This document shows positions 633 to 15,102 of a stretch of DNA of 15,102 bases, one piece after another. The DNA comes from Fimbriimonadaceae bacterium (lineage in GTDB: Bacteria > Armatimonadota > Fimbriimonadia > Fimbriimonadales > Fimbriimonadaceae), in contig JAIBBE010000124.1 in the NCBI GenBank assembly GCA_019694835.1, positions 1 to 15,102 on the forward strand, written 5' to 3'. The translations under genes and the position numbers were made by a program. Position 1 is the stretch's first letter; each line of letters opens with the position of its first letter. Below the pieces are notes generated by a model. That model did not search any database. It was not told where the DNA came from and saw only the letters and a program-made list of their open reading frames with translations.

Positions 633-638
633 AGAGGA
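633..638 (+). promoter_or_regulatory. Ribosome binding site AGAGGA that fixes the start of the 3027-residue protein
   Basis: AGAGGA sits 5 bases before the ATG at 644. An in-frame TGA at 617-619 rules out any earlier start, and the next plausible in-frame start (GTG at 680) lacks a comparable site. The ATG at 644 is therefore the start, and it places the twin-arginine motif at residues 24-25. Confidence 0.7.
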
Positions 639-643
639 AAACC

Positions 644-3600
644 ATGCATGATACAGACTGGGCCAAAGCCTTTATACCCGTGGGAGATCAACTGCTCGCG
701 AGCACGCTCACGCGTAGGTCGTTCATTGGCGCATGCATTGGGATCCCCGTGGCGCCACTTCTGCTTGGCACGTCTACTGCTGGCGCTGCGGCGACTCTCG
801 AGCGCGGAGACAGTGAGTCCAGCCTACGCTTCACCGAAGATCAAGACGGACTGAGCGTCACCTGGTATCCCGCCCTTCAGGCTAGTGCGTGGACCTGGCG
901 CATCGTACGCAAGGCCTTTGGGCCAGACGCCAAGTTTACGCTGAGGCGCCTTGCAGTTCAGCCTAAGCTCATCTTTCAGTTGAAGGTCGAAGACGCCCGC
1001 TTCGGTGAACTGAAGTCCGCATCACACTGGATCACGTTTACGCACGTCCCCGAGGAGCGACGCTGGCGTGTGCGCCTGAGGACCGATATCTGGTGTGCGC
1101 CGAAGCATCTGAGAAGCAACGAAGAAGTAGGCATTCCATTCGAGCATTTGTCGATCTGTGTCGGCGAGGAGAGCGCTTCGAGTGCAATCAAATGCAAGGT
1201 GCCTCCGCAGGAGTCCGAGGGCTTCTGCATCGACACGGATGCCAGCGTTCTCGGCCCCGCTTTGCAGAGTGTCCTCGAACAGCACGTGCGAGTTGAGGGT
1301 CCGCTGCGGTTGACTCTAGCGAGAAACGGCGTGTGGTCCCTGATCCCACGAAGAGCGGGCCGCCAAGCTCTCGGCAAGATTCAGTTGGCAGATGGGGCAT
1401 TGGTGGCTCCCCACGGTATCAGCATGGCGTGGTGCGAACCTGAGTCTGACGATGGACCCGGTGCGGTGATCGCCAAAGATCGTAGGCGCACCCATGACGA
1501 CCCGGTCTTCGTAGCCTGGGGTGAGATAGAAGCGTCAGCGAAGCCGATCGTCCTGGGCAATGCGGCTGGGCCTCGTGTCACGCTGAAGGCACTGCGCCTA
1601 ATCGCTTCAACAGACCCTTCTAAAAATCCGGCGTCGCCGGAGGAGTCGACTCCTGTAACCTCGGCTCAAGCGAGCGCTCCCGAGAATCCGACGAAGTCCA
1701 AGAGGGTAGGTACGGGCCAACCGACGCAGCCCACACAAGAGTGCAGAGCGGACGCAAAGTCGAGCGGGTTGGACAGGGCAGAAGCCGTGAAGGCGTTCAT
1801 TGAGCGACATGGGCGCCTGGGATCTGATCCGCCTCAGTGGAGGTACGTCCGCCGCGACTGGTCGTGGAAGGATCGTCACCCGGCGGGCATTTCCACCGTG
1901 CGAGCGGCATGGATGATCCACTTCGCCCGGTCTCCGAAGTTGCCTGAACTCGGCCCCTTGTGCATTCACGAAGGGGCCTTGGCACATTCCAAGTCTTTCG
2001 AACCCAGGTTGAAATTCGCTGGACGACTCGATGGGAATCCGTGGTGGCTCAAGTCCCGCATAGGATGGTTGCGCGTACAAGGCTGGACCTCCGACGCGTC
2101 AGAAATCGACCCGGCGAATGCTAGCGCCAACACTCATCACCCTCTGATGACTGCCGAAAGTGCCGGCTTCGGGTCCGTGCTGTCGTCATTGGATGTACCG
2201 CTTCTTCTGACGGAGAGTGAGCTTGCGCCCTCAGGGTGCGAGTTCAGCAAGCTGACGTTTGCGCCAACTGGCTTGCGTGCGGCTTACGCCTCGGACGCGC
2301 GCAACGCCAGCACCGACTTGCGCGCCAGCGACAGCTACCTGTGGCTCGGCGCACCGTCGGAAATTGGTGACCTGCCTCTAGCGCACATCGACCTGACTCG
2401 GGCGCGTATCGAAGTCGCGCGCACTCATGACCTGGCTCGGCTGGCGTTCGTCTTCGCCGGATTGCACCTAGACATTCTCGACCGCTGTGCGTGGATTACC
2501 GACACACGCGCGAGTTGCGGAGTTCGCAAGCGAATCGAGCCGGGCAGAGATAGCGATGCGTCAGTGCTGGACACACGCCCGGTGCTGGTAGCCGAGTTTC
2601 CCCCACAACACGTGTTTGAGGAAGCAATATTCAGGCCGGGCGCCGCGCCATTGCCCGATGTGGCGCTTAGAGCGCCGCGATTTGCCGTCATGGTTGGAGG
2701 GGAGGAGAAGACGTTCAGCGCTTCGCTGCCCGAGTTGTTGCTCCAACTTAAGTTACTGAAGACCGAGGCAGAACGTGTGGTTGTTCGAGAGGCCTATGCT
2801 GAGTTGAAGAAGATGGAGCAGAAAGACGAACAGAGTCCTGCCCATGACAAGACAGAACCCTTCGATAGGTTTTCGAAGGAGTTCAAGAAACTCTTCGAGC
2901 AGCCAACATGGAAGAACAAATGGCCCTCGGATCACCAAGTCTACATCGGTGCAGCGTGCCTACCGCCGGATCTCGCCGTGGAGGCAAGGCGAATCTATGT
3001 CGAGATGAGGAAGGAGGTTCTCGCTCCGTTACTGACACGAACGCTCACGGATGCCAACAACCTAGTGAAGTTGCTGAATGGTGAGAAGCCGACGTCCAGC
3101 TACCTGACCGAGACTTGGTACCAAAGGGTATACCAATTTGCCTCGGACCTGTACGAGAAATTCCTGCAGCTGAATCCCGCGGACAAAGTCACTCACCCCC
3201 TCCCCCCTCGCGATAGAGCCTACTTGATCGAGCGAGCGGTCAGCGGTGTCATGCAAGGCTATGCTGACTTTCGCGATTACTTTGCCCAGTGGATGGTGGA
3301 GAACCAGGGGAACCAACTCTACGACCTGGACGATCTTGAGTATTTCAGCGAGGACAACCGCCCCAAGGATCTGAAACTCAGCTTGGGCAAATACCAAGGA
3401 TGGGTTGCAGAGAGCAGCAAAGCCTATCTTAAGTTGCTCGGGGGTACGCAGGAACCTGCTCCGCTGATGCGAGCCCGCCTGTCTGGCCCGTCGCGCCTGG
3501 CCTTTCATGTCGATTGCGGCAGCCGTCCGGGCATCGACCTAGAGGACGGCGATGCGCACTTCCCATCGAAGAAGTGGCCCGGCCAGCGAAACTTGCCCGC

Positions 3601-6600
3601 GGTCGGCACTTGGTTGCCGTTCAGCTTCGATGCGCTGACCGACTGGGGCCACTATGATCTCGCGGTGACGCCACGGGCAAGGCAGGCCGCTGCCTTCGAC
3701 GATGTCGGCGTATTGATCAGGCGCGATATCAGCGAAGGTGGTCTTGACGACGATTCGGCAGGTGCCGACATCGCGATGATCAAGTCTCTCGGAATCCGCA
3801 GCGGGCAGGTCACCACGCGCCCGCAGGGACCGGGCCGTTCACGGGACTGGGGAAAGGAACTGCGCACCGTCCAGGAACGTCTCGCTGATGTCGAGGCGTC
3901 GCTGCGCGTGGTCCCAGACGAGCTTCAGACCGCAATCGAATTGCCGGCGCGCCTAATCCTTTCGCCCTCGCAGAAAGCTCAGTGGCGAACTCCCCGCCAG
4001 TGGTGTCCGGATAGCGGTCGTCCCGTGCCGCTGTGGTCGGCAACCTTGACTACTGATTCAGTGAATCCATTGGTCCGCGCCGTGGCTTCGCCGGACATGC
4101 GTCCGGAGTTCGTGCGGTATGGATTGGAGCGCAGGCTATTGGCGGTGAAGACGGGATCAGGTGATCCGGCCAAGTCCCCGCACTCGCCAGTGGGATCGGC
4201 TCCACCGCGCGGTCCTCGGGCACCATGGACGCTCGGCTTCGAAGAGAGCGATCCCAACGTCACTATCGAGGAACTCTTCCTGGCGACGTCCCCGGACGGC
4301 ACACCCAAACCGATGACTGCGGCAGATATCTGCGCCAAGCAGGATCAACATCAGGTCATCGAGTACCTCTGTCGCCGGATGCGCGACCGGGCAGCGTATG
4401 GCAAACACGCCTTGTTCCGTTCAACGCTGGACGCCTACGACCGGCACGAAATCGTACTGCTCAGTTCGGCCTGGGGCCTGCCCGTGCGCGGACGCCGTGA
4501 AAAAAGTGGAGAACTGCAAGCAGTGCGTGTTTCCAGCCAGGTCGAACTGCCTCCCGAGTGGCGGTTGCTTGACGCACAGGCCGGCACGGCGATGTATAGA
4601 CCGCGCGCGCTCAAGGTGCGCGAGCTGACGTTGACGGCTCTGGGCGGCACCCTACGCCACGACAGCGACTTCGTGCCGCCCGCCGCAGCGCGCCACATCA
4701 TCCACGGACCGTTGTTCGACTCAATGGCGGTCGAGCGGTGGCAGCATTGGACCGTGCTCGGTCGCGACGCGTTCTCCGAGGTCGTCTACAAAGGCTATCT
4801 CTTCCCGATCGGCCATCGCGCATCGCTAGTCAAGCAGACCGAGCGCATGTTCCTCCGTCCTGCCGGCGGAGGCTTGGTCCGCGCCTACTTGCGCCAACGC
4901 ATGTTCATTCGCCTAGCGCGACCCGACAAGACCTTTCCCGCTTATGGCCAGCCGCACGGCGGACGCAAGTTTCCGGGCGGTGTGGTCAGCATGTTGACGC
5001 TCACCACGCCCGATATCGTGGATCCTACCGAAGATACCCAGAAGCTGGACAAGCCGACTCCGTCCGGCCGCCTGTTCGCGAACCAGGCCGGGCTGGTGTT
5101 CTGGCCGAGGACCGCCAGAGTCGATGGCGCCGAGGTCGAATTCGACATGCAGATCCAGGGTGCAGTCACCCGCGGCAAGCTGATCTTCGTCGACAACATG
5201 GCCGCCAACCGGGCGGAGTTGATGGACGATCTGGTGGCCTACTACAACCGGCAGCCGTCCCCGGACATTGACCAGAATCAGCTCAAGGTCGTTCCGCTCC
5301 AACCGCACTTGCATCTGCGGACGCTCGACTTGAGAGGCCAGGCTCTTCGTTACTGCGACGAGGTCAAGCCTGGCAGCGCTTCGCACAAAACGCTTGCGTG
5401 GACGCTGAAGGCCACCGGCTGCGCCGGTGTTACCTCATACCTGAACACGAGAAATAAGCCGATCGATCCGTTGGAATGGGAAGGCCGAGTCGAACGGTAT
5501 GACGACCCAATGCTTGAAGGCGCCGATCAGCCACCATTCTTCCCGGCCATCGAGACCGCCCGCATCCGGATCGACCAGGTCGAGCGGCTGACCAACGGCG
5601 CACCTCAAGCTGCGATCGCTCAATTCGACGGCTGGTACCTGAAGAACGGCTTCGAAGCGGACAGGATCTCGAATGACCGTGACTTCCTCGAGATCTATTT
5701 GGACATCGTCAACCGCGTGACGATGGACATGGGCAGCAGCGGGGACCGTAGCGGGGGTGTCATGCGCCCGGCCGGAGAGGTGATCGCACTGTCGCGCCAG
5801 CGTGGGCCGCTGACCGGCACCACCGATGCCGCAGTCCGATCGCCCGGCACTACCGGTTCAGTTACGGGCGCCAACGGCTATCCGGTCACGCCACCCAAGA
5901 CACCCTCTCCATTGAGATTCGTCGGCGGCGCGGTGAACGCAACTAGCGGTTCCGAAGGGAGAACGAAAGACGCCTTCAGGCAATTCTTCGAGAATAAAAA
6001 CCCCGAGTTGAAATCCAAGATTCTCGGTCTGGTCTCGATCGCGGACCTGGTGAGTCACTTGAATGTGAGCGACGCGGCCTCGGATCTGCCTAGATTGCGC
6101 GACGCCGTCGAGTACGGGCTGAGCGGAATTGAAAGCGGCGCTGCAGTTGTCCGCACGCAGGTGGTCGTACCGCTAAACGACGTTGTCAAGGGCCTCGACG
6201 AGCAATGGCGAAAGGCCGGCGCGCAAGCCAAGGGCAGTCTGCCAAGCATCGTGGGCGGGATGGAAGACGTGTTCCCCGACGTCGACCGAGCTTTAAATGA
6301 CTTGCTGACCGTGCTGGGCAAGTCATTGGAGAGCTCAGATGACCCCGCCTTCTTCTCGTCATTGGGAGATATTTACGAATGCGGCCGCCGACTCATGGAC
6401 GCCTGCGGTCGCGTCGCCGCCAATCCCCTCGACCAACTTCAGATAGCGGCGCAGAAGAAGCTTCAAGGGTTGGGGGCCGGCGTCGAGGACTTGATCAAGG
6501 GACTCGACCGTCTCGACGTCGAGGCACTTGTCAAGCCACTCAACTCCAGCCTCACTTCCGCGGAAACTGCACTACGAGTGTCCGGCGGTGCCTTCGATTT

Positions 6601-9600
6601 ATCCGCTTCGATGGTCGCCGTCATGGAAAAGCTGCGGGCCGCGGTCGAGGAACAACAGCCCATTCTTGCGAAGTTCGACGAATCATTGTCCCTGCTGAAG
6701 GTTCCGCCGCCTGTCGACTTGCAGACCGCGATTATGTCGCACCGTACCTCGAAAGGCACTTCAGCGCCGCTAAACACGGCGCGCGACTTCGTCGACAAAT
6801 ACCTTGAGGCCATCGAGAGTTGGTTGATGCGAGCGCAGGGCCCGCTGAACTCCCTGCCCACCACGAAGAACGAGGTTGTCGCCGGCGCATGTGCCACGGC
6901 CCTTCAGTACTTCAAGGCCTCGATGGCACGCATCGCCGAGGCACGCAACGCGCTTAATAAAGCGCTTGAAGTTTCCGAATACCGTCAAGCGGCCCGTGCC
7001 TTGTCGACGATCCTGGAGATTGCCGACACGCTCGAGAAAATCAAGCGCGAACCCACGGCATTGCTGCCATTGTTCTCGCAAGCGCTATCGGAGTACCTAG
7101 CGCTGCTGGTCGGTCCGCGGCTGGAAAAGCTGCCGCCTTTGAGTGATGTGAAGGGCCTGGCGCGCAAGGTTCTCGACCCGGTCAAGGACATCGCGGAGTC
7201 GGGAATGCTTAAGATTGCCGATCCTCAAAAGCCGGGCAATCCGAATCCGACGCCTCCGGTCGGCGACAAATTTTCGATTTCGAGCACTCCTATCTGGCAG
7301 GTGCCCGGAAGCAATTCGAGCTTGGTCGCTCATATTCACAAAGTGGCTGAGGCCGTGGAGGCTGTCCTTCAGAAAGCACGGCAGTCCGACAAAAAGGAAG
7401 ATGTCGTCGACGACGCATCGCGCGTCAAACTCGCGATGCTCGGTCACCATGCCCTCAAAGCTGAGAATCAACTGCATCGCGCGACCATTGCGCTTCGGCT
7501 GACCGGCATCGGTAACGCCATCGCTGACTTTGATGAAAGCGGATTTCAAGCCTCGGTGCGCCAAGCTGATGCCGCCTACCAAGCGCTCGAGCGACTTGGC
7601 GAAAGCATGGACGCTGCCATGCAACAGCTGGTTCAGGACCTTGGCGCCATTCCAAGCACGAAGGGCCTCGACCCGATCGTGACTCGCGTCCGGACTGTGG
7701 TCCGGGAGACCTTGGGCTGGCTGATGGACCGCAACCAATCCTTGGAAAGCCGACTAGAAGAGGTTGCTAATACTCACGAGCGGTGGGCGGAATTGCTGGT
7801 GCCATGGATGAATCTATCCAAAACGTACCAAGAAAAAACGAAGGTGGCTTTCGACCTCGCAGACCGTAAAAATTCGGATTGGTTGGAGCAGAAGCAACTC
7901 TGGCTGCCAAGTTTGCCGGATCCGGTCAGTGCATCCAAGGTGACGGGGGCGGCAGCGGTCACGGTGTTGCAGCGCTTGGTATCAGAACAGGTGATGGCCT
8001 GGGTTTCCAGTCTGGCTGCGCCTTCTCAGGTGGCCACCAAACGTCTATTGGACGCGTTCCGTCCGATCGTTCAGCAGGTGGCGGATGCCTACAAGACGTT
8101 TCTTGACACTCGAAAAACTGCTTATAGGGCCACGCTTGGCACGCCAGCTGAGTGGGTGAACGACGCGTTGCTCGTTGCGGCCGACCCGAGCCTCGCATTC
8201 CTGCCGGGCCAAGCGCCCGACAAGAGCGAAACCAAGGCGAAAGACGAAAGCGACCAGCTCTACTTGGATTCGGAGTCCCTGCGGAACCTGCGTGATGTCA
8301 AGGGGGAGATGTCAGCCGCAGAGCGATCGCAGGCCGTACGCTTTCTAGACCACATCGTTACCGGTTGGTGCACCGGGCAGTCTACGCCGCTACGCATTGC
8401 GAAGCAGGTGCAGCGTATCTCGCTGGAGGAAATCCGCTCCAAACTGATGGCATTGATCAACTTCTCGGCGATCCGGGAGGAAATTGAGGAGAGGATCAAG
8501 CTTCTCATACCGACATCGACGACATTGTCATACGAATTCTCAACCACCATCCAGTCGGAGGCCGGCAGCGGGAAAGTTTTCCAGCCTAAAGAAGGTTGTT
8601 TGCTGAGCGTCAATTCGCACGCGAGGATCAACCTGCTGGACGCGAAAAAAGGACCCACCTTCCAGTCGATCGGCGAATTGGGTGCTTTTGATATCCGGTT
8701 GCTGGGAAGCGTTGACGCCCTGACGCTGCACTTCAAGGGCGTACGTTTCATGTCGAGAGGCGGCACCCCAGATTGCGACCTGCAGTACGACGGCTTCACG
8801 ATCGGAAATGAGTTGAGATTCCTGGAACAACTGACGCCGTTCTTCGGCTCGAAGGCAGGCAGCGGTTTCTATCTCCAACCGCTGAGCAGCGGGGTTGGGC
8901 TGGAGGCAGGTTACGGACTGAATCTCGGTACGTTCAGCGTCGGAAACCTGGCGATTTTCAACGTATCCCTCAACGCTGCGGCGAGGTTGCCCTTCGACAA
9001 CCGTGAGGCGACCTTCGTTGCAGCGCTGTCGCGGCGCGACTCGCCCTTTACGATTGCGGTAGCACCTTACGGTGGAAGCGGATTCTTTGCCCTCGAGGCC
9101 AACACGACGGGAATTGTCGGCTTCGAAGCCTCGTTCGAATATGGGGGAGCCGCTGCATTCAAGTATGGTCCCCTGGAGGGTCAAGGCCGGCTGATGGTCG
9201 GCGCGTACATTCGAAGCGGGAAGGGCGAGCCGAAAATCTTCGCCACCTTCTACGTCGGTGGCTCCGCCTCGATCTGGATCTTTAGCTTTGGCGCGTCCTT
9301 GTATGTCAATGCCACGCAAGACAAGCATAGCCGGAACATGGTTGGCTCTGCGACGTACGCCTTCTCCTTTTCAATGGGCTTTGTCGACTTCGACTATAGA
9401 GTCAATGTCGATGTGGACCTTCCCCTCGATGGCAGCAAGAAAGAGGAAAAAAAAGATGAGCGGAGTGCGCATTCTCGGGGACTAGATTTTGATGAGCCGG
9501 TACGCCTAGCCGCGATCAATCCTGAAGCATGGGGATCTACGGTCAGAGACGTACCGCTTCACCTCGCGTCGTTCCAGCAGTCACAGCAGACGTCGACTCG

Positions 9601-9727
9601 ACCGAAGGGCACTTCGTCAAACGGGAAGCCAAAGCGCAGGGTAAAGACCGTCTGTCCCAGCGCGGACTGGCGGGAGTATTCGAGGTATTTCGATATGAGC
9701 CTGAAAGTTCGGTTGGAGGAGTATTGA
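644..9727 (+). CDS. Giant exported protein (3027 aa) with Tat-type signal, long helical region and C-terminal beta-rich domain; function unknown
   Basis: Predicted mass is about 330 kDa. Residues 1-50 form a Tat-like signal: T23-R24-R25-S-F-I, a moderately hydrophobic core with prolines, and AGAAA as the likely cleavage zone. The order then is: beta-rich region (about 50-320); Ser/Pro/Thr linker (about 325-380); mixed region; charged helical block (about 687-940); beta-rich core with GHRASLVKQTER (1390-1401) and AYLRQRMF (1414-1421); Gly/Ser/Thr/Pro linker (about 1690-1765); almost continuous amphipathic helices (about 1775-2620); alternating polar/hydrophobic, Gly- and aromatic-rich strands (about 2628-2930) including PYGGSGFFAL (2808-2817); and a basic, probably disordered tail. 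I see no P-loop, HExxH or other catalytic motif and no further membrane helix. From memory, the central motif and the C-terminal domain recall uncharacterised giant proteins in other bacteria. It is first in a tight operon; its stop lies one base before the next start. A role as an exported scaffold is inference; the function is unknown. Confidence 0.93.
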   Translation: MHDTDWAKAFIPVGDQLLASTLTRRSFIGACIGIPVAPLLLGTSTAGAAATLERGDSESSLRFTEDQDGLSVTWYPALQASAWTWRIVRKAFGPDAKFTLRRLAVQPKLIFQLKVEDARFGELKSASHWITFTHVPEERRWRVRLRTDIWCAPKHLRSNEEVGIPFEHLSICVGEESASSAIKCKVPPQESEGFCIDTDASVLGPALQSVLEQHVRVEGPLRLTLARNGVWSLIPRRAGRQALGKIQLADGALVAPHGISMAWCEPESDDGPGAVIAKDRRRTHDDPVFVAWGEIEASAKPIVLGNAAGPRVTLKALRLIASTDPSKNPASPEESTPVTSAQASAPENPTKSKRVGTGQPTQPTQECRADAKSSGLDRAEAVKAFIERHGRLGSDPPQWRYVRRDWSWKDRHPAGISTVRAAWMIHFARSPKLPELGPLCIHEGALAHSKSFEPRLKFAGRLDGNPWWLKSRIGWLRVQGWTSDASEIDPANASANTHHPLMTAESAGFGSVLSSLDVPLLLTESELAPSGCEFSKLTFAPTGLRAAYASDARNASTDLRASDSYLWLGAPSEIGDLPLAHIDLTRARIEVARTHDLARLAFVFAGLHLDILDRCAWITDTRASCGVRKRIEPGRDSDASVLDTRPVLVAEFPPQHVFEEAIFRPGAAPLPDVALRAPRFAVMVGGEEKTFSASLPELLLQLKLLKTEAERVVVREAYAELKKMEQKDEQSPAHDKTEPFDRFSKEFKKLFEQPTWKNKWPSDHQVYIGAACLPPDLAVEARRIYVEMRKEVLAPLLTRTLTDANNLVKLLNGEKPTSSYLTETWYQRVYQFASDLYEKFLQLNPADKVTHPLPPRDRAYLIERAVSGVMQGYADFRDYFAQWMVENQGNQLYDLDDLEYFSEDNRPKDLKLSLGKYQGWVAESSKAYLKLLGGTQEPAPLMRARLSGPSRLAFHVDCGSRPGIDLEDGDAHFPSKKWPGQRNLPAVGTWLPFSFDALTDWGHYDLAVTPRARQAAAFDDVGVLIRRDISEGGLDDDSAGADIAMIKSLGIRSGQVTTRPQGPGRSRDWGKELRTVQERLADVEASLRVVPDELQTAIELPARLILSPSQKAQWRTPRQWCPDSGRPVPLWSATLTTDSVNPLVRAVASPDMRPEFVRYGLERRLLAVKTGSGDPAKSPHSPVGSAPPRGPRAPWTLGFEESDPNVTIEELFLATSPDGTPKPMTAADICAKQDQHQVIEYLCRRMRDRAAYGKHALFRSTLDAYDRHEIVLLSSAWGLPVRGRREKSGELQAVRVSSQVELPPEWRLLDAQAGTAMYRPRALKVRELTLTALGGTLRHDSDFVPPAAARHIIHGPLFDSMAVERWQHWTVLGRDAFSEVVYKGYLFPIGHRASLVKQTERMFLRPAGGGLVRAYLRQRMFIRLARPDKTFPAYGQPHGGRKFPGGVVSMLTLTTPDIVDPTEDTQKLDKPTPSGRLFANQAGLVFWPRTARVDGAEVEFDMQIQGAVTRGKLIFVDNMAANRAELMDDLVAYYNRQPSPDIDQNQLKVVPLQPHLHLRTLDLRGQALRYCDEVKPGSASHKTLAWTLKATGCAGVTSYLNTRNKPIDPLEWEGRVERYDDPMLEGADQPPFFPAIETARIRIDQVERLTNGAPQAAIAQFDGWYLKNGFEADRISNDRDFLEIYLDIVNRVTMDMGSSGDRSGGVMRPAGEVIALSRQRGPLTGTTDAAVRSPGTTGSVTGANGYPVTPPKTPSPLRFVGGAVNATSGSEGRTKDAFRQFFENKNPELKSKILGLVSIADLVSHLNVSDAASDLPRLRDAVEYGLSGIESGAAVVRTQVVVPLNDVVKGLDEQWRKAGAQAKGSLPSIVGGMEDVFPDVDRALNDLLTVLGKSLESSDDPAFFSSLGDIYECGRRLMDACGRVAANPLDQLQIAAQKKLQGLGAGVEDLIKGLDRLDVEALVKPLNSSLTSAETALRVSGGAFDLSASMVAVMEKLRAAVEEQQPILAKFDESLSLLKVPPPVDLQTAIMSHRTSKGTSAPLNTARDFVDKYLEAIESWLMRAQGPLNSLPTTKNEVVAGACATALQYFKASMARIAEARNALNKALEVSEYRQAARALSTILEIADTLEKIKREPTALLPLFSQALSEYLALLVGPRLEKLPPLSDVKGLARKVLDPVKDIAESGMLKIADPQKPGNPNPTPPVGDKFSISSTPIWQVPGSNSSLVAHIHKVAEAVEAVLQKARQSDKKEDVVDDASRVKLAMLGHHALKAENQLHRATIALRLTGIGNAIADFDESGFQASVRQADAAYQALERLGESMDAAMQQLVQDLGAIPSTKGLDPIVTRVRTVVRETLGWLMDRNQSLESRLEEVANTHERWAELLVPWMNLSKTYQEKTKVAFDLADRKNSDWLEQKQLWLPSLPDPVSASKVTGAAAVTVLQRLVSEQVMAWVSSLAAPSQVATKRLLDAFRPIVQQVADAYKTFLDTRKTAYRATLGTPAEWVNDALLVAADPSLAFLPGQAPDKSETKAKDESDQLYLDSESLRNLRDVKGEMSAAERSQAVRFLDHIVTGWCTGQSTPLRIAKQVQRISLEEIRSKLMALINFSAIREEIEERIKLLIPTSTTLSYEFSTTIQSEAGSGKVFQPKEGCLLSVNSHARINLLDAKKGPTFQSIGELGAFDIRLLGSVDALTLHFKGVRFMSRGGTPDCDLQYDGFTIGNELRFLEQLTPFFGSKAGSGFYLQPLSSGVGLEAGYGLNLGTFSVGNLAIFNVSLNAAARLPFDNREATFVAALSRRDSPFTIAVAPYGGSGFFALEANTTGIVGFEASFEYGGAAAFKYGPLEGQGRLMVGAYIRSGKGEPKIFATFYVGGSASIWIFSFGASLYVNATQDKHSRNMVGSATYAFSFSMGFVDFDYRVNVDVDLPLDGSKKEEKKDERSAHSRGLDFDEPVRLAAINPEAWGSTVRDVPLHLASFQQSQQTSTRPKGTSSNGKPKRRVKTVCPSADWREYSRYFDMSLKVRLEEY
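9715..9721 (+). promoter_or_regulatory. Ribosome binding site GGAGGAG for the 1733-residue protein
   Basis: GGAGGAG lies inside the last codons of the preceding gene, 7 bases before the ATG at 9729. Only one base separates the upstream TGA (9725-9727) from this ATG, so terminating ribosomes can re-initiate directly. This arrangement supports translational coupling and a controlled ratio of the two giant proteins. Confidence 0.75.
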
Positions 9728-9728
9728 C

Positions 9729-12700
9729 ATGACCGTCAACGGCGTCTTTAAAGTGATTCCGTCTGGCGTCATCGACGGCAAGCGGTTGCGTGTCACCGTT
9801 ATGTTTTCGCCGTCAGTGGCCTTCAAGACACTCCCATCCACGCTGGTGAAGGAATGGCGCGAGAAGAACTGGACATTAAGGGTAGCCAAGTTGCGCGTCA
9901 CGGGCGAGAAGTGCCCTGCCAGTTTCGCAGACGCAATCCAAACGAGCGCAACAAGCCATGGCTGCACGGCAACCTGGAATGCTGGAAAAGCAGCTTGGAG
10001 CACCGGGACACAAACCTGGCTGGACGATTTGTGGGAGGAAAGCTTTAAAGACAAAAAAGGCAATTTGCCGGATGACGTCTGGGCGAAGCTCGCAAAATCA
10101 CTCGAGGCGTCGAACGATGGGAATGTCTTTCAGCCTGACAAGGACTTGGACGAGCACTCGAATGGCAAAGCCGAGGTCTTAATCCGGGCTGTTGTGCCAT
10201 CACGCCAAAGCGATCTGGCCCTGCTGCTCGAGAGCGAGCGAGCGCTGGAGATCTGCTGTACCGCCAAGTGGGCACATGGTGACTTCGTCGGGTACGCCGA
10301 AGAGGAGAACCGTTGTATCGGGATAGTCAGCTGTTCGAACGAACCTGCGGAAGTCGGCTCACCGAAGAATGCAGGTATCATCAATTCATCGGAAGTAGCC
10401 AAAGAGAAGGCACAGCAAGACCTCCGAAACGATGCACGGGATCGTTTCAAGAAGGCACTCAAAGCGGTGGACGATCAGTACGCGGAATGCGCACAAGACG
10501 AAAACAAAAACCGAGCCAGCGCTCCATGGCTCGCCGATCCGACCGCCATCGCGGGCGACCGCAGCCAGGTGTCCAAGGAAATCCCCGGGGCCGCACAATC
10601 GCATATAGAGGCGAATAGTCCCAAAGAAAAGCCTCATGATGATCCTGACCCTGATGGGATCAAGCAGCGGTACTTCGCAATCCAGGGGTCGCCTTCGTTG
10701 TCCCGCCTGTTCGGACTGACTGTCGATCTCGAGATTTCGCGCGACGAACTCAATTGCGAGCTTCAGCTTTTGCCTGGCGACCAGAAGAGCGAAGCGACGG
10801 TAGTTCATTTCTTGATCGCTCTGGCCAGTGACGGCTCCTCCGACAATAAGTCCATCTGGTCTCTAGTTCGTTACCGACCCGGTGGCGAAATGCATTTCCT
10901 TCCTGCCAGCAGATTCGAATTATTTGTGCCGGCACAACGCGGAGAACTCCACCCGCATGCGTCGCAGCATGAAGGCGTGCTTGTGCTCGGACAGGAGTTT
11001 GAGGGAAAAAAGCCTGAGGGCGACCCCAACGCGAAGCCACCGGTTCTGAGTCGCTTTGCGCTAAGCAGTCTCGACGTTCAACGTGCCACGAACGGAGCGC
11101 TTGATCGTATGGTGCTTCAACGGCCAGGCGAAGCGAAGCCTGAAGCCCCCACCCAGCCCCTGTTGGCCTGCAAACCTGTCAAGTGGGCACGAAAGACACA
11201 CTCGACTGCTGGACTCGTGCTGTTGGATCGCGGGCGCCTTGAGCAGACCGTCAGCCAGTTCGCTGCGCGAACATGCCACATGAAACAGCAGATCATCGTT
11301 CTGGACTCGGCCGACTTATTGGTCGGCTATCGGCTGGACATCGGCGTTCCCGTCAAGGGACGCGCTCGTGAAGACTGCGATGTCGCTTGGCGGAGCCTTA
11401 TGGCGCGCAACGTGGTTCACGGCGCTGACAGCGCGGAACCGGTCACACGGACGGTGCGACTCCTGATGGGAGGTACGGCAAGCACCCCCTCGATATGGCA
11501 ACGAACGCTCGACGACGCACAGCTCAGTTTGCCGGCACGATTGGTGCCCACATCGGACAAAGAGTTACGTATCCACGACGCATACGTGGAAGAGGTCGTG
11601 GCCGTGTGGACCGGGGAGCCGATGGGGGCGCAATGCGCAGGCGAAGAATCCGGCAAGATGGCCGACATGCCAGTGGGAGTCGGGGAGACCGTCCGCCTAC
11701 CCACTACAGGCGAAGATCCGCAACACCGCCTACTGCCTCCGCTGCGTTTTGGCTGGCCTTACCGCGTGGGCGTTCGCGCGGTGTACGCAGGCTCGATCTC
11801 ACTGCCGCTTCAGCATGCGCGGCAGTTGTACGAAGGCGGAGCCTCATGTCCGAAAGAGAATGTGCTGACGCTTCCAGCACGCGTCGACGAGCGATCGGGC
11901 GTCCGCAGGTTCCTCCGCCATGAGAGGATCTCTGCTCCCTATCTGCTCATGCATCGAGAGATCGCGCTACGTTCCAATCATTCAATGGGCTTCGAGAGGT
12001 CGGCGCACGCGATCATCCGCAGCGTCGGCAACGACGACAGGCACGCGGATCGGGGATTTCCTGTGAGCACCCAGCGAATCTTTGTCCCGCCGTCCGTGGA
12101 GATGCACTTCGCGGCCATGCACGGGGTCTTCGATAAGAACCCTCAGAAGCTTCCCGAGCAGGGCTTGCCCGGCGTCCGATTCGATGCCAAGGCTGGCGGC
12201 TTTCCGTATGTGACCGCACCATCCATCGAAGGCATCAACGGCGAAGTCTTCGAAGGCAATCGCACGATCTCCGTTGAAGCTGATCAGTGTGGGGACGCCG
12301 TCTACGAGGAGCGAACCGGTGCAGAAAAAGAGCGGCAACGGCGCTACTATCCTGATCCTGCAGCCGAGACTTGGGTGGTCGCAGTGCGTCATGCCGGAAC
12401 CAATAATTATCTGGAAGGGCTACCGGTCACGGTACCAATTTTCGCGGACAGCACTTATCCAAATTGTAGACCTCTGGTGCTGCGGATTCAGCGTGACAAG
12501 TCGGCTCACCATCGCGGGGCAAACCCTCGCCTCCAAGACGTTCTGTCTCGTCCGTCCCAGCGAGAGGTGTCTCCATTAGTCACTCACAGCACCGAAATTG
12601 CGGTGACGCTCGCGTCAGGCGATGATTTTGATGTCGATGTGTGGTGCGTGCCACGCGCAAAAACAATGGCCGATTGGTTCGCACCTGTGGAGAACATTGG

Positions 12701-14930
12701 CACCCTGGCGCTTCTGAATGCCCGTAAATCGGGAGATGGCAATCAAACGCTGCCTCAAAAACTTCTGGCTGCGTTGGACAAAATGCTCCCACCACCGATG
12801 GCCCTCATTTGCAAAAACACTCTGAAGGACTATTCCTGTTGGCCAGAAGCGGACACACTTCAGACACTTCAAGGTAATGACGGTGTCGGCGGCCTTTCCG
12901 CACCGGGGCCGGTCACTCGCCTGGCAATCGCCAACGCTTTGCATGATACGTTGATCGCCCGTCCGCTGGACGAGATCGCTGCGGTGCAGACGCTCAGGGT
13001 GACCCATGCGACACTGAGGCCGTTCCGCTTGCCCGCATTTGTGCCGGCCGATTCTCTGATGCGGTTGCAAGTGCGGCGGATTGAGGAGTCCACGCCAGCG
13101 GGAACGTCAGCGGGCGATGACTCTAGGGAAAATGCAGCCGAGTACCTTCTGGAAGGAGCGGTCCGGATCGACCTCATCACGACTGGCGCTATCGAGTTCC
13201 GTGCCAAAACTTCCTTCCCAAGTACGTCGGCATTCGACGACCCGCGGCGAGGACGAAGCGCACGAGATCGGCGTAATGGCTCCTGGCCCGACCAATGCGG
13301 CCAATCGCTCAAGACCGAGCACATCTTTGGCTTCGATGTCGCTACCGACGGACGCGTAACCCTTCCAGAGGTCGAGATTTCGCTGCTCCAGGTCGAAGAA
13401 TTGTTGCCCCCTGTGTCGTGCAGTCGCGAACTTCTCCCGGACGACGACGGATTGTGGCGCTTGAATATCAAAGACCTAAGACCGGGATCTGACCAACCCG
13501 CCTGGGGTCGGATTGTCACGCGTCATGTCTTTCCCGATCGAAAGGCGCGACGACTCTGCGTTCGCATGGTTGCCCGGCCTCGCCACGAGGAGCTGATGCG
13601 AACCGCCAATCGCGTGGCAAAGGCGGGCAACTGGCTACGTCCCGGCCGAGAAGCGGTTGAGCCCATCGACGATAAACTGCCGGAAGTACCGATCTGGTTG
13701 CCAGCCGGAATTCGCCCGTCCGAACCGATCGCACTGACGCCTGTCCCTGCGTTCGTCTGGAGGACCAACCCTGATTCTCATACTGCGTGTCGCACCGCCG
13801 TGATCCGCATCCCGCTGGGCCGAGGTTGGTTCTCGTCGGGCGAGGGAGAGCGCCTGGGCATTGTCGTTTGGCCGCCAGGTTTGCTAAACGCCGCCGCGGG
13901 GCTTCCGCCCTTACCCGCAGGGTCGAGCACATGTCCGCCGCTCCCTGAGGTACTCGCGCTGCCTGACTTCATGGACGAGGATCTGGGACCGGGAGGCCGT
14001 TTCGTGACACGCTGGGGCAGCGATCCGACGAAGGATGTCGATCAGAATGCACCCGCGGATTCCCGACTACCCGGTTTTCTGGACCCCTCGTCATTCAAAG
14101 ACCTCGGCCCGACAAACTCAGCCTCCGGAATGGGTTTCACCGCAGAACTGGCCCCGGTGGTACGGATGCCTGTGCGTGTCGAGGCGTTGCCAGGTCAACT
14201 GCAGGCCGATATCCCTCTGACCACGCTTGACGTCTCCCTGGTGACATACGAACCACGCTTCGACATCGAGACTGAGCAGTGGTATGTGGATGCAGCTATC
14301 GAGCATCCGTTCGAGGCACAACCTTTCGTCCGCCTCGGGCTCGTCCGATTCCAGCCTCACGCACCGGAAGACCTTCAGGTGTCGTTCCCGACAACACAGT
14401 GGGTTCAACTGCTTCCTCGTCGCGACGTTCGTGTCACCTACGAACTTCGCAACAGTGTGGAATTCGCAACGGTCACTGTCGAGGGCCTTGGCCCGTTGGA
14501 CGATCGGTTTGATGCCGCAGACGATGGCGTTGGAACGAGGGTCTGGGCCCATGTGATGAGCGAATACATCAACGACGCGGGCCTCGTCTGCCGCAGCACG
14601 CATTCTCCTAAGCCCATGTGCCTCGCGCCAGTGTCTGCCGGTGGCCAAGCGCAGGAGGAATATCGCGGGCCACGCCGAACCTGGAGCATCGATATCGATC
14701 TCGATTCATTGCCGGATCGGAACGAATACGGCATCCAGGAGAAGGTGAAGCACTATATCTACGTGGAGGAGCGCGAAGCGTACCTCCCCGCGACGTATGT
14801 GCACGAACCCGTCCCGCCGGAAATTGCCAGCGGAGGACTGGAATCAAGCATGCACCAGGAATCCGGCCCTCGTTTCGTTGCGCGTCTGGAACTGAACAAG
14901 CGAATACCCAACGGAGGAAAGCCGCGATGA
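9729..14930 (+). CDS. Giant partner protein (1733 aa), beta-rich, no signal peptide; function unknown
   Basis: Predicted mass is about 190 kDa. The N-terminus has no hydrophobic signal and begins with a strand-like RLRVTVMFSPSV (19-30). A charged helical and linker stretch (about 215-310) precedes PSLSRLFGLTVDLE. The middle carries LRFGWPYRVGVRAV (672-685), a VRRFLRHERISAP stretch (725-737) and RIFVPP...MHGVFD (783-802). The last third is beta-rich with GWFSSGEGERLG (1366-1377), the aromatic YEPRFDIETEQWYVD (1507-1521) and PFVRLGLVRFQPH (1532-1544). Length and motif order recall, from memory only, uncharacterised proteins that neighbour giants like the upstream one. No catalytic signature is visible. 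Coupling to the upstream gene by one base suggests the two act together. As the upstream product has a Tat-type signal and this one has none, it could be exported bound to it or remain cytoplasmic; the sequence cannot decide. Confidence 0.93.
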   Translation: MTVNGVFKVIPSGVIDGKRLRVTVMFSPSVAFKTLPSTLVKEWREKNWTLRVAKLRVTGEKCPASFADAIQTSATSHGCTATWNAGKAAWSTGTQTWLDDLWEESFKDKKGNLPDDVWAKLAKSLEASNDGNVFQPDKDLDEHSNGKAEVLIRAVVPSRQSDLALLLESERALEICCTAKWAHGDFVGYAEEENRCIGIVSCSNEPAEVGSPKNAGIINSSEVAKEKAQQDLRNDARDRFKKALKAVDDQYAECAQDENKNRASAPWLADPTAIAGDRSQVSKEIPGAAQSHIEANSPKEKPHDDPDPDGIKQRYFAIQGSPSLSRLFGLTVDLEISRDELNCELQLLPGDQKSEATVVHFLIALASDGSSDNKSIWSLVRYRPGGEMHFLPASRFELFVPAQRGELHPHASQHEGVLVLGQEFEGKKPEGDPNAKPPVLSRFALSSLDVQRATNGALDRMVLQRPGEAKPEAPTQPLLACKPVKWARKTHSTAGLVLLDRGRLEQTVSQFAARTCHMKQQIIVLDSADLLVGYRLDIGVPVKGRAREDCDVAWRSLMARNVVHGADSAEPVTRTVRLLMGGTASTPSIWQRTLDDAQLSLPARLVPTSDKELRIHDAYVEEVVAVWTGEPMGAQCAGEESGKMADMPVGVGETVRLPTTGEDPQHRLLPPLRFGWPYRVGVRAVYAGSISLPLQHARQLYEGGASCPKENVLTLPARVDERSGVRRFLRHERISAPYLLMHREIALRSNHSMGFERSAHAIIRSVGNDDRHADRGFPVSTQRIFVPPSVEMHFAAMHGVFDKNPQKLPEQGLPGVRFDAKAGGFPYVTAPSIEGINGEVFEGNRTISVEADQCGDAVYEERTGAEKERQRRYYPDPAAETWVVAVRHAGTNNYLEGLPVTVPIFADSTYPNCRPLVLRIQRDKSAHHRGANPRLQDVLSRPSQREVSPLVTHSTEIAVTLASGDDFDVDVWCVPRAKTMADWFAPVENIGTLALLNARKSGDGNQTLPQKLLAALDKMLPPPMALICKNTLKDYSCWPEADTLQTLQGNDGVGGLSAPGPVTRLAIANALHDTLIARPLDEIAAVQTLRVTHATLRPFRLPAFVPADSLMRLQVRRIEESTPAGTSAGDDSRENAAEYLLEGAVRIDLITTGAIEFRAKTSFPSTSAFDDPRRGRSARDRRNGSWPDQCGQSLKTEHIFGFDVATDGRVTLPEVEISLLQVEELLPPVSCSRELLPDDDGLWRLNIKDLRPGSDQPAWGRIVTRHVFPDRKARRLCVRMVARPRHEELMRTANRVAKAGNWLRPGREAVEPIDDKLPEVPIWLPAGIRPSEPIALTPVPAFVWRTNPDSHTACRTAVIRIPLGRGWFSSGEGERLGIVVWPPGLLNAAAGLPPLPAGSSTCPPLPEVLALPDFMDEDLGPGGRFVTRWGSDPTKDVDQNAPADSRLPGFLDPSSFKDLGPTNSASGMGFTAELAPVVRMPVRVEALPGQLQADIPLTTLDVSLVTYEPRFDIETEQWYVDAAIEHPFEAQPFVRLGLVRFQPHAPEDLQVSFPTTQWVQLLPRRDVRVTYELRNSVEFATVTVEGLGPLDDRFDAADDGVGTRVWAHVMSEYINDAGLVCRSTHSPKPMCLAPVSAGGQAQEEYRGPRRTWSIDIDLDSLPDRNEYGIQEKVKHYIYVEEREAYLPATYVHEPVPPEIASGGLESSMHQESGPRFVARLELNKRIPNGGKPR
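14913..14917 (+). promoter_or_regulatory. Ribosome binding site GGAGG for the third gene
   Basis: GGAGG sits 9 bases before the ATG at 14927, within the end of the preceding gene. It supports the ATG that overlaps the upstream stop as ATGA. Confidence 0.7.
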
Positions 14931-15102
14931 TCTACCCGAAATCAATTTCCCTATCGCTCCGCCCAACCATCCAAGTTACTGCGGTGGCCTGTTTCATCTT
15001 TGCAGGCCTGCTGCCAGGAGAGGCCCGATCCTTCACGCCGAAGGATAATGCCGACCTGCTGAATTTCTGCCCGCCCGTTGCCTTGCAAATGGCCGTCGCG
15101 GC
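14927..15102 (+). CDS. Start of an exported protein with Sec-type signal peptide (partial, continues off the right edge)
   Basis: Only 58 complete codons are visible. The start ATG overlaps the previous stop codon (ATGA), with GGAGG 9 bases upstream, so the gene is translationally coupled to the giant pair. The N-terminus has one basic residue near position 5 and another near 12, then a hydrophobic core (about 15-29, including VTAVACFIFAGLL), and a possible signal peptidase I site near PGEA or ARS (about 33-35). Cys22 is at the start of the hydrophobic core rather than after it, so this does not look like a lipobox. The start of the mature part (FTPKDNADLLNFCPPVAL) is not recognised. The context implies a periplasmic or secreted component working with the two giant proteins. 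Confidence 0.8.
   Translation, partial: MIYPKSISLSLRPTIQVTAVACFIFAGLLPGEARSFTPKDNADLLNFCPPVALQMAVA

What the first reader, a model, noticed from the sequence alone, without database searches (positions are those of the whole stretch)
644..15102. Tightly coupled operon of two giant uncharacterised proteins plus a secreted third protein
Genes of 3027 and 1733 codons are separated by one base, and the second overlaps a third, signal-peptide-bearing gene by 4 bases. Neither giant shows a catalytic signature, and both are rich in beta strands and linkers. One carries an export signal. My recollection is that paired giant proteins with these motifs occur in scattered bacteria without an assigned function. 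The arrangement suggests one large exported assembly made in fixed ratio.
Basis: partly seen in the sequence, partly recalled or inferred. Interest (0 to 1): 0.75.

Follow-up and report, generated by a model that had tools for sequence, protein, structure and literature searches.

The report
Giant exported protein pair, changing partner
Two very large bacterial proteins of unknown family are encoded side by side in distantly related bacteria, beside exported partner genes that differ from species to species and include protein- and wall-cutting enzymes, which suggests an undescribed exported machine with exchangeable parts.

Summary
In detail: A (3027 aa) and B (1733 aa) are one base apart and a third gene, C, overlaps B by 4 bases (C is cut by the window end). 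Neither giant matches Pfam, NCBIfam or PDB sequences beyond chance. The pair is old: B follows A in 36 of 37 genome loci (the other contig ends) and in 16 of 17 further regions, 13 of them with shorter A, in Proteobacteria and Acidobacteriota. A carries a twin-arginine (Tat) signal, B none; some rhizobial pairs have a TatA gene beside them. A's modelled end resembles outer-membrane-barrel strands. The third gene is not fixed: at least 17 of 63 loci have a peptidase or lysozyme within 2.5 kb, nine directly behind B; C belongs to another recurring, unknown family. Partner families recur in separate B branches. I read it as a Tat-exported carrier with exchangeable partners (0.4). Against: A is over twice the quoted Tat cargo size, many partners have their own signals, some neighbours are solute-binding proteins, and the enzyme control is weak (p 0.067).

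The parts
633..638 (+). Shine-Dalgarno-like AGAGGA before A
   Evidence: read
644..9727 (+). giant A, 3027 aa, 332.6 kDa
644..793 (+). Tat signal peptide of A (R24-R25 in TRRSFIG, hydrophobic stretch, small residues near residue 47; end approximate)
   Evidence: sequence; motif in 92 of 120 listed A relatives by a crude pattern
3446..4099 (+). conserved core part 1 of A (residues 935-1152), kept in many short relatives
   Evidence: BLASTP to short relatives
4418..6064 (+). conserved core part 2 of A (residues 1259-1807)
   Evidence: the matching part of short relative P0150 is modelled at pLDDT mostly 90-98
6131..8083 (+). long helical / coiled-coil-like region of A (approximate limits), largely absent from the short relatives
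   Evidence: the 60 profile matches shown all lie in this part and are coiled coils or helical bundles; lies between the blocks matched
8603..9418 (+). C-terminal beta domain of A (residues 2654-2925); outer-membrane-barrel-like strands in the short relative's model
9715..9721 (+). Shine-Dalgarno-like GGAGGAG before B, inside the end of A
   Evidence: read
9729..14930 (+). giant B, 1733 aa, 190.7 kDa, no signal peptide seen
13008..14780 (+). B residues 1094-1684: beta-sandwich, fibronectin-III-like domains in the model (weak match)
14913..14918 (+). Shine-Dalgarno-like GGAGGA before C
   Evidence: read
14927..15102 (+). start of C (58 codons, cut by window end); Sec-type signal by reading; relative of the HPVxGxREFG family

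Best explanation
A and B are the fixed part of a two-protein exported assembly; the gene behind B (less often in front of A) encodes an exchangeable partner that the assembly carries or presents outside the cell. Proposed order: A, with its Tat signal, and B, which has no signal, are made from overlapping or abutting genes, fold and bind in the cytoplasm, and leave together through Tat, B (and in some loci a signal-less lysozyme) riding on A. Other partners carry their own signal and would join in the periplasm. Outside, A's barrel-like end contacts a membrane and B's sandwich domains reach for a target, on which the partner (protease, lysozyme, or the unknown C family) acts. Shown by sequence: conserved adjacency, Tat motif on A, none on B, TatA genes beside some pairs, changing and recurrent partner families. 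Inferred: A-B binding, Tat export of so large a cargo, membrane contact, carriage of the partner, and the target, most likely other microbes or a eukaryotic host.
For: Adjacency: B behind A on the same strand in 36 of 37 genome loci (gaps), 16 of 17 further regions by profile, 7 of 9 more (of the other two one contig ends within A and one region held neither). Tat: pattern in 92 of 120 listed A, 83 of 120 listed short A, 0 of 29 B; TatA-like gene beside the pair in L008, L013/L014, L039, L095, L097. Partners by Pfam: Trypsin or Trypsin_2 L007, L084, L101, L104; M35 L008, L038, L095; M10 L013, L026, L027, L097; GH24 lysozyme L019/L028, L084, L098; C70 L023; M23 L042; M12A L035, L099: 17 of 63 non-duplicate loci, 18 with the eCIS_core gene of L010, a lower bound as not every neighbour was scanned. 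Secreted-looking ORFs: 22.4 per 100 kb within 2.5 kb of the pair, 6.6 beyond 4 kb, p 1.5e-5. 22 labelled loci, 8 partner families, at least 11 changes on the B tree against a minimum of 7 (no shuffled control). The C domain also sits inside a 1596-aa protein with a C70 protease.
Against: A is 333 kDa; a review quotes up to 150 kDa for Tat cargo (passage of PMC6708511). Most non-lysozyme partners seem to have their own signals (by reading) and need no carrier to cross the inner membrane. Other neighbours are solute-binding proteins (Pfam SBP_bac_5 for L016; L034 by similarity to it, L102 and L037 similar to each other and named by reading), hardly cargo. In eight Acidobacteriota regions whose neighbours I read (not scanned with Pfam) I recognised no such enzyme. 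The hydrolase control is weak: 8 of 41 near against 0 of 15 far, one-sided p 0.067; only 18 of the 41 were scanned, partly chosen because they looked like enzymes. Apart from a damaged one at L021 the TatA genes lie in one clade of the B tree. No immunity gene was identified. No co-folding was possible.
Confidence: 0.4

Rival explanations
1. The neighbours are not cargo but service enzymes of the pair: peptidases that cut the giants to maturity and lysozymes that open the wall so that the assembly can leave, as in type 10 secretion.
For: The lysozyme partners show no signal peptide by reading and match Phage_lysozyme; M23 enzymes often act on walls (recalled); wall hydrolases in release of large toxins are described (search listing and abstracts only). 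A protease could release domains of a 3000-aa protein.
Against: Proteases of unrelated folds fill the slot, more variety than one maturation step needs; in many loci no hydrolase was recognised; holins and spanins were not searched for. The C family has no known activity.
Confidence: 0.25
2. A and B are a surface or envelope structure (adhesin, sheath, outer-membrane scaffold) and the exported neighbours are independent genes of the same mobile islands.
For: No catalytic family recognised in either giant; fibronectin-III-like and barrel-like folds; plasmids and islands; varied neighbours including solute-binding proteins and transposases.
Against: A 4-base overlap of B and the next gene in the window, L038, L084 and L095 speaks for one transcript; the same partner families recur in separate B branches; secreted-looking ORFs are denser near the pair than farther out in the same loci.
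Confidence: 0.25
3. The pair with its hydrolase is a defence system that acts in the envelope against phages or other mobile DNA.
For: Known or candidate defence genes lie within about 10-16 kb in six loci: TmtA (L007), Zac-like (L009), DrmA (L026), SIR2/ThsA-like (L031), Lamassu-like (L040) and Dpd (L041, annotation).
Against: Nine neighbours were scanned, chosen because they looked like defence genes (6 of 9 matched), so the six loci are no rate; islands collect unrelated systems.
Confidence: 0.08

Closest known systems
Polymorphic toxin systems
   Same: conserved large carrier with exchangeable enzymatic part; peptidases among the known toxin domains (passages of PMC3482391)
   Different: the variable part is a separate gene, not the C-terminal end of the giant; the words TAT and twin-arginine did not occur in the held part of that paper's text (first 300,000 of 357,715 characters); immunity genes not identified here
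Tc toxin complexes
   Same: giant structural proteins encoded together with a variable enzyme component (recalled)
   Different: no Tc domain in A or B by Pfam at E<=1; here a Tat signal and a barrel-like end
Type 10 secretion (holin, endolysin release of large proteins)
   Same: phage-type lysozyme beside a giant protein gene in three non-duplicate loci
   Different: a minority of loci; most recognised partners are proteases; holins not searched
Tat hitchhiker complexes
   Same: one subunit with a Tat signal, partner without
   Different: A alone is over twice the quoted Tat cargo size; the known case is an enzyme complex (only the title of Rodrigue et al. 1999 was seen, in a reference list; rest recalled)
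Extracellular contractile injection systems (eCIS)
   Same: an eCIS_core gene near one pair (L010)
   Different: tube, sheath and baseplate genes were not looked for; A and B match no family in Pfam

Membership tests
Tat substrates | twin-arginine motif followed by a hydrophobic stretch | tested here: met
   window A; 92 of 120 listed A and 83 of 120 listed short A by a crude pattern; among the misses printed, several start late, several show RR motifs the pattern failed, and some short A seem to lack a signal
Tat substrates | export depends on TatC | not testable with these tools
   needs a tatC deletion
Tc toxin complex | TcA, TcB/TcC domains recognised by Pfam | tested here: not met
   no Pfam family at E<=1 in window A or B; in 19 B relatives at E<=0.1 only three chance-level families; the other A relatives were not scanned except five short ones
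Polymorphic toxin | exchangeable toxin domain at the C-terminus of the carrier polypeptide | tested here: not met
   the C-terminal ends of A and B are conserved in the aligned relatives (26 A; 19 B); variation is in the next gene
Polymorphic toxin | adjacent immunity gene | not tested
   small secreted ORFs follow some partners, not analysed
Outer-membrane beta-barrel proteins | closed barrel fold | tested here: inconclusive
Type 10 secretion | wall hydrolase with holin in the locus | tested here: inconclusive
   lysozyme in three non-duplicate loci, L019, L084, L098; holins not searched
eCIS | sheath, tube and baseplate genes in the locus | not tested
   no systematic scan of the flanks
Known anti-phage defence system | member of a described system | not tested
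   A and B themselves were not scanned against PADLOC; nine neighbours were

The most novel reading that the evidence does not exclude
An undescribed protein delivery system: two giants, together about 520 kDa, exported folded through Tat (in one clade with its own TatA), forming a carrier whose enzymatic load is a separately encoded, freely exchanged protease or lysozyme; if so it also breaks the accepted size range of Tat cargo.
Probability: 0.25. Interest if true: 0.93.

Novelty: categorically new. Interest (0 to 1): 0.75.

Why it matters
A gene pair that stays together from Acidobacteriota to Proteobacteria, makes two very large proteins and has no family in Pfam or NCBIfam is a plain gap in knowledge. 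The exchangeable, in part hydrolytic partner makes a delivery or release function testable. A 333-kDa protein with a Tat signal, in some relatives with a neighbouring TatA gene, gives a direct test of how large a folded cargo Tat can move.

Tried and rejected
Sequence searches of A and B against Pfam, NCBIfam and PDB gave nothing beyond chance: a 25-residue glucagon-receptor match for B (E 0.0084), a sub-threshold NCBIfam match for A and coiled-coil matches for A's helical part, the ZorA tail included (E 5.1e-8). I do not read the ZorA or apolipoprotein matches as kinship.

A and B are not related to each other by profile comparison. No relatives in viral contigs and no viral fold match with E<=0.001: a phage origin is not supported. 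The C family gave nothing of use in Pfam, NCBIfam, PDB, plasmids or viral contigs.

Rows dropped before counts: L014, L025 and L028 as near-copies of L013, L011 and L019; L089 as L015, L094 as L021, L096 as L012; L103 held no A or B; L105 and L106 are continuations of L091 and L090. Two of seven plasmid records with a B match were not fetched.

A first B tree timed out; the reported one is a FastTree with four long branches (L104, L036, L031, L035), in which one B (L104) was cut to 1600 residues.

Literature: searches did not surface a description of this pair; they cover only the open-licence library and my choice of words. Of PMC6708511 and PMC3482391 I saw passages, of PMC5777986 outline and abstract (not used), of the rest search listings.

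Full report
WHAT IS THERE. The window holds A (644-9727, 3027 aa, 332.6 kDa), B (9729-14930, 1733 aa, 190.7 kDa) and the first 58 codons of C (from 14927), all on the + strand, spaced +1 and -4 bases, each with a Shine-Dalgarno-like stretch. One weak promoter-like site lies upstream at 495-522 (0.3 expected). No tRNA. A begins with a Tat signal (TRRSFIGACIGIPVAPLLLG); B shows no signal; C has a Sec-type one by reading.

NO KNOWN FAMILY. Neither A nor B matches Pfam or PDB sequences beyond chance, and NCBIfam gives only one sub-threshold match, E 0.083, in A's helical part. A profile of 19 B relatives finds nothing in PDB, and scanning those 19 gives three chance-level Pfam families. A profile of 26 A relatives gives 84 PDB matches, of which the 60 shown all lie in the helical part and are coiled coils or bundles. 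The named relatives in the lists are nearly all hypothetical or uncharacterized; the exceptions I saw are EF-hand, methyl-accepting chemotaxis, CHASE3 and Tat-signal domain-containing (P0064, P0107, P0144, P0149), and one listed short relative, P0267, has a precomputed Pfam domain (PF01060).

A FIXED PAIR. Of 37 genome loci encoding A, 36 have B downstream on the same strand (L020 ends first); the space is -70 to +142 bases by longest ORFs except in L015 (519) and L030 (1926), where the frame may be damaged. Of seven plasmid records with a B match, five were viewed: four carry the pair and one (L042) only a piece of B. Searching the conserved core in sampled genomes found it in 5 of 399 of the order of L001, 4 of 397 of that of L008, 12 of 297 of the phylum of L006, 8 of 146 of the genus of L008 and 10 of 195 of the genus of L019; each count includes the centre genome, and only part of the first-look candidates were scored. 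So the pair is rare and scattered. The eleven new hits of the phylum of L006 are short open frames (758-1470 aa), as are some of the others; short relatives keep A's core and C-terminal domain and lack most of the first 900 residues and most of the helical part. Of 17 regions fetched (13 with short A, L084 of middle length, L089-L091 long), 16 have a B relative by profile (E at most 1.8e-23) directly behind A; in the 17th (L093) the contig ends within a BLAST-linked B piece. In a third set of 9 regions 7 have both, L101 ends within A, and L103 had neither. A search with a short A found 263 proteins, 120 listed, with names from Aminicenantes, Anaerolineaceae and Desulforhopalus among others; for these only A was seen, not the pair.

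EXPORT. A crude pattern finds a Tat signal in 92 of 120 listed A, 83 of 120 listed short A and 0 of 29 B; one of the 29 B has some other hydrophobic N-terminal stretch. Among the A misses printed several start downstream of the signal or show RR motifs that the pattern failed; some short A seem to lack one. A TatA-like gene lies within about 1 kb of the pair in L008, L013/L014, L039 (annotated tatA), L095 and L097, and a damaged one near L021. All but L021 fall in one B clade, so this is one lineage's trait. A review passage gives up to 150 kDa for Tat cargo (PMC6708511, passages only); A would more than double it.

THE CHANGING PARTNER. Pfam places these within 2.5 kb of the pair: Trypsin or Trypsin_2 (L007, L084, L101, L104), M35 (L008, L038, L095), M10 (L013/L014, L026, L027, L097; L014 by similarity), phage lysozyme (L019/L028, L084, L098; L028 by similarity), AvrRpt2-like C70 (L023), M23 (L042, where only a B piece remains) and astacin M12A (L035, L099). 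That is 17 of 63 non-duplicate loci (39, 16, 8), 18 with the eCIS_core gene of L010, whose peptidase nature is recalled; a zinc phospholipase C also lies near L038. It is a lower bound because not every neighbour was scanned. Nine loci have the enzyme as the first gene behind B on its strand: L007, L008, L019, L023, L026, L042, L084, L095, L098. The 4-base overlap seen in the window recurs with the M35 gene of L095, the trypsin of L084 and an unknown gene of L038. The four lysozyme genes (three non-duplicate loci) show no signal peptide; most other partners seem to have one (by reading and a crude test).

C ITSELF. The 58 visible residues match the gene right behind B in L001 (47 percent over 53 residues, E 2e-11), which belongs to a family also beside the pair in L011, L025, L029, L032 and (opposite strand, in front of A) L033, with a shared HPVxGxREFG motif. 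In 244 genomes of the order of L007, 3 have the family; in two of them the domain also or only lies inside a frame of about 1620 codons, which in L107 has DUF3238 and C70 protease domains by Pfam, with a subtilase gene about 2 kb further on. So C is a module that also occurs fused to a protease.

EXCHANGE AND CONTROLS. On a B tree, 22 labelled loci with 8 partner families need at least 11 changes against a minimum of 7; C-family, M10, M35, trypsin and astacin each occur in separate branches (no shuffled control was run, and some of these rows are long branches). Secreted-looking ORFs are 3.4 times denser within 2.5 kb of the pair than beyond 4 kb (41 in 183 kb, 15 in 226 kb; p 1.5e-5); the test is crude and also counts, for example, two regulator-like genes as secreted. 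At least 8 of the 41 near (18 of them scanned, partly chosen because they looked like enzymes) and 0 of 15 far (all scanned) carry the families above, eCIS_core included (p 0.067); one far ORF matched Beta-lactamase, another kind of hydrolase.

AGAINST THE READING. Solute-binding proteins also occupy the place before A (L016 by Pfam; L034 by similarity to it; L037 and L102, similar to each other, by reading), a DUF362-like gene by reading (L006) and many unknown proteins the place behind B, and in eight Acidobacteriota regions the neighbours that I read were ordinary genes. So the hydrolase link is a feature of part of the proteobacterial pairs, not of the whole family.

SETTING. Six loci have known or candidate defence genes nearby (nine proteins scanned, picked by eye, 6 matched). 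Four of five plasmid records viewed are typed conjugative. The pair is therefore at least at times mobile.

CONCLUSION. The finding is confirmed and extended: an old, undescribed gene pair whose neighbours change in a patterned way. Delivery of an exchangeable enzyme is my best reading (0.4); service enzymes and a structural role are close rivals (0.25 each).

Noticed in passing
L007, L009, L026, L031, L040, L041 flanks: Known or candidate anti-phage defence genes (TmtA, Zac-like, DrmA, SIR2/ThsA-like, Lamassu-like, Dpd) near the pair.
   Followed up: partly
L008:6250-8214, L023:6177-8270, L039:6724-7482, L097:2049-3092: Divergent regulator-like genes, related to each other, just upstream of A; they look like SARP/BTAD regulators from memory, not tested.
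   Followed up: partly
L107:7189-11979 and its counterpart in L108: A 1596-aa protein that carries the C-family domain, DUF3238 and a C70 protease domain, with a subtilase gene about 2 kb on; looks like a secreted toxin-like protein.
   Followed up: partly
L016, L034, L037, L102, L099, L105: Solute-binding-protein-like genes directly or closely beside the pair (L016 by Pfam; the others by similarity or reading).
   Followed up: partly
L005, L006, L013, L018, L027, L034, L087: A's reading frame is in two to four pieces; decay or sequencing error not distinguished.
   Followed up: no
L042:14722-16257: A B fragment without A, followed by an M23 peptidase, on a conjugative Bradyrhizobium plasmid.
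   Followed up: no
L077, L078, L080, L086, L092: In these Acidobacteriota-phylum regions the pair keeps shared neighbours, among them one BLAST cluster near B that reads as photolyase-like in L080 and L086, unlike the changing proteobacterial loci.
   Followed up: no
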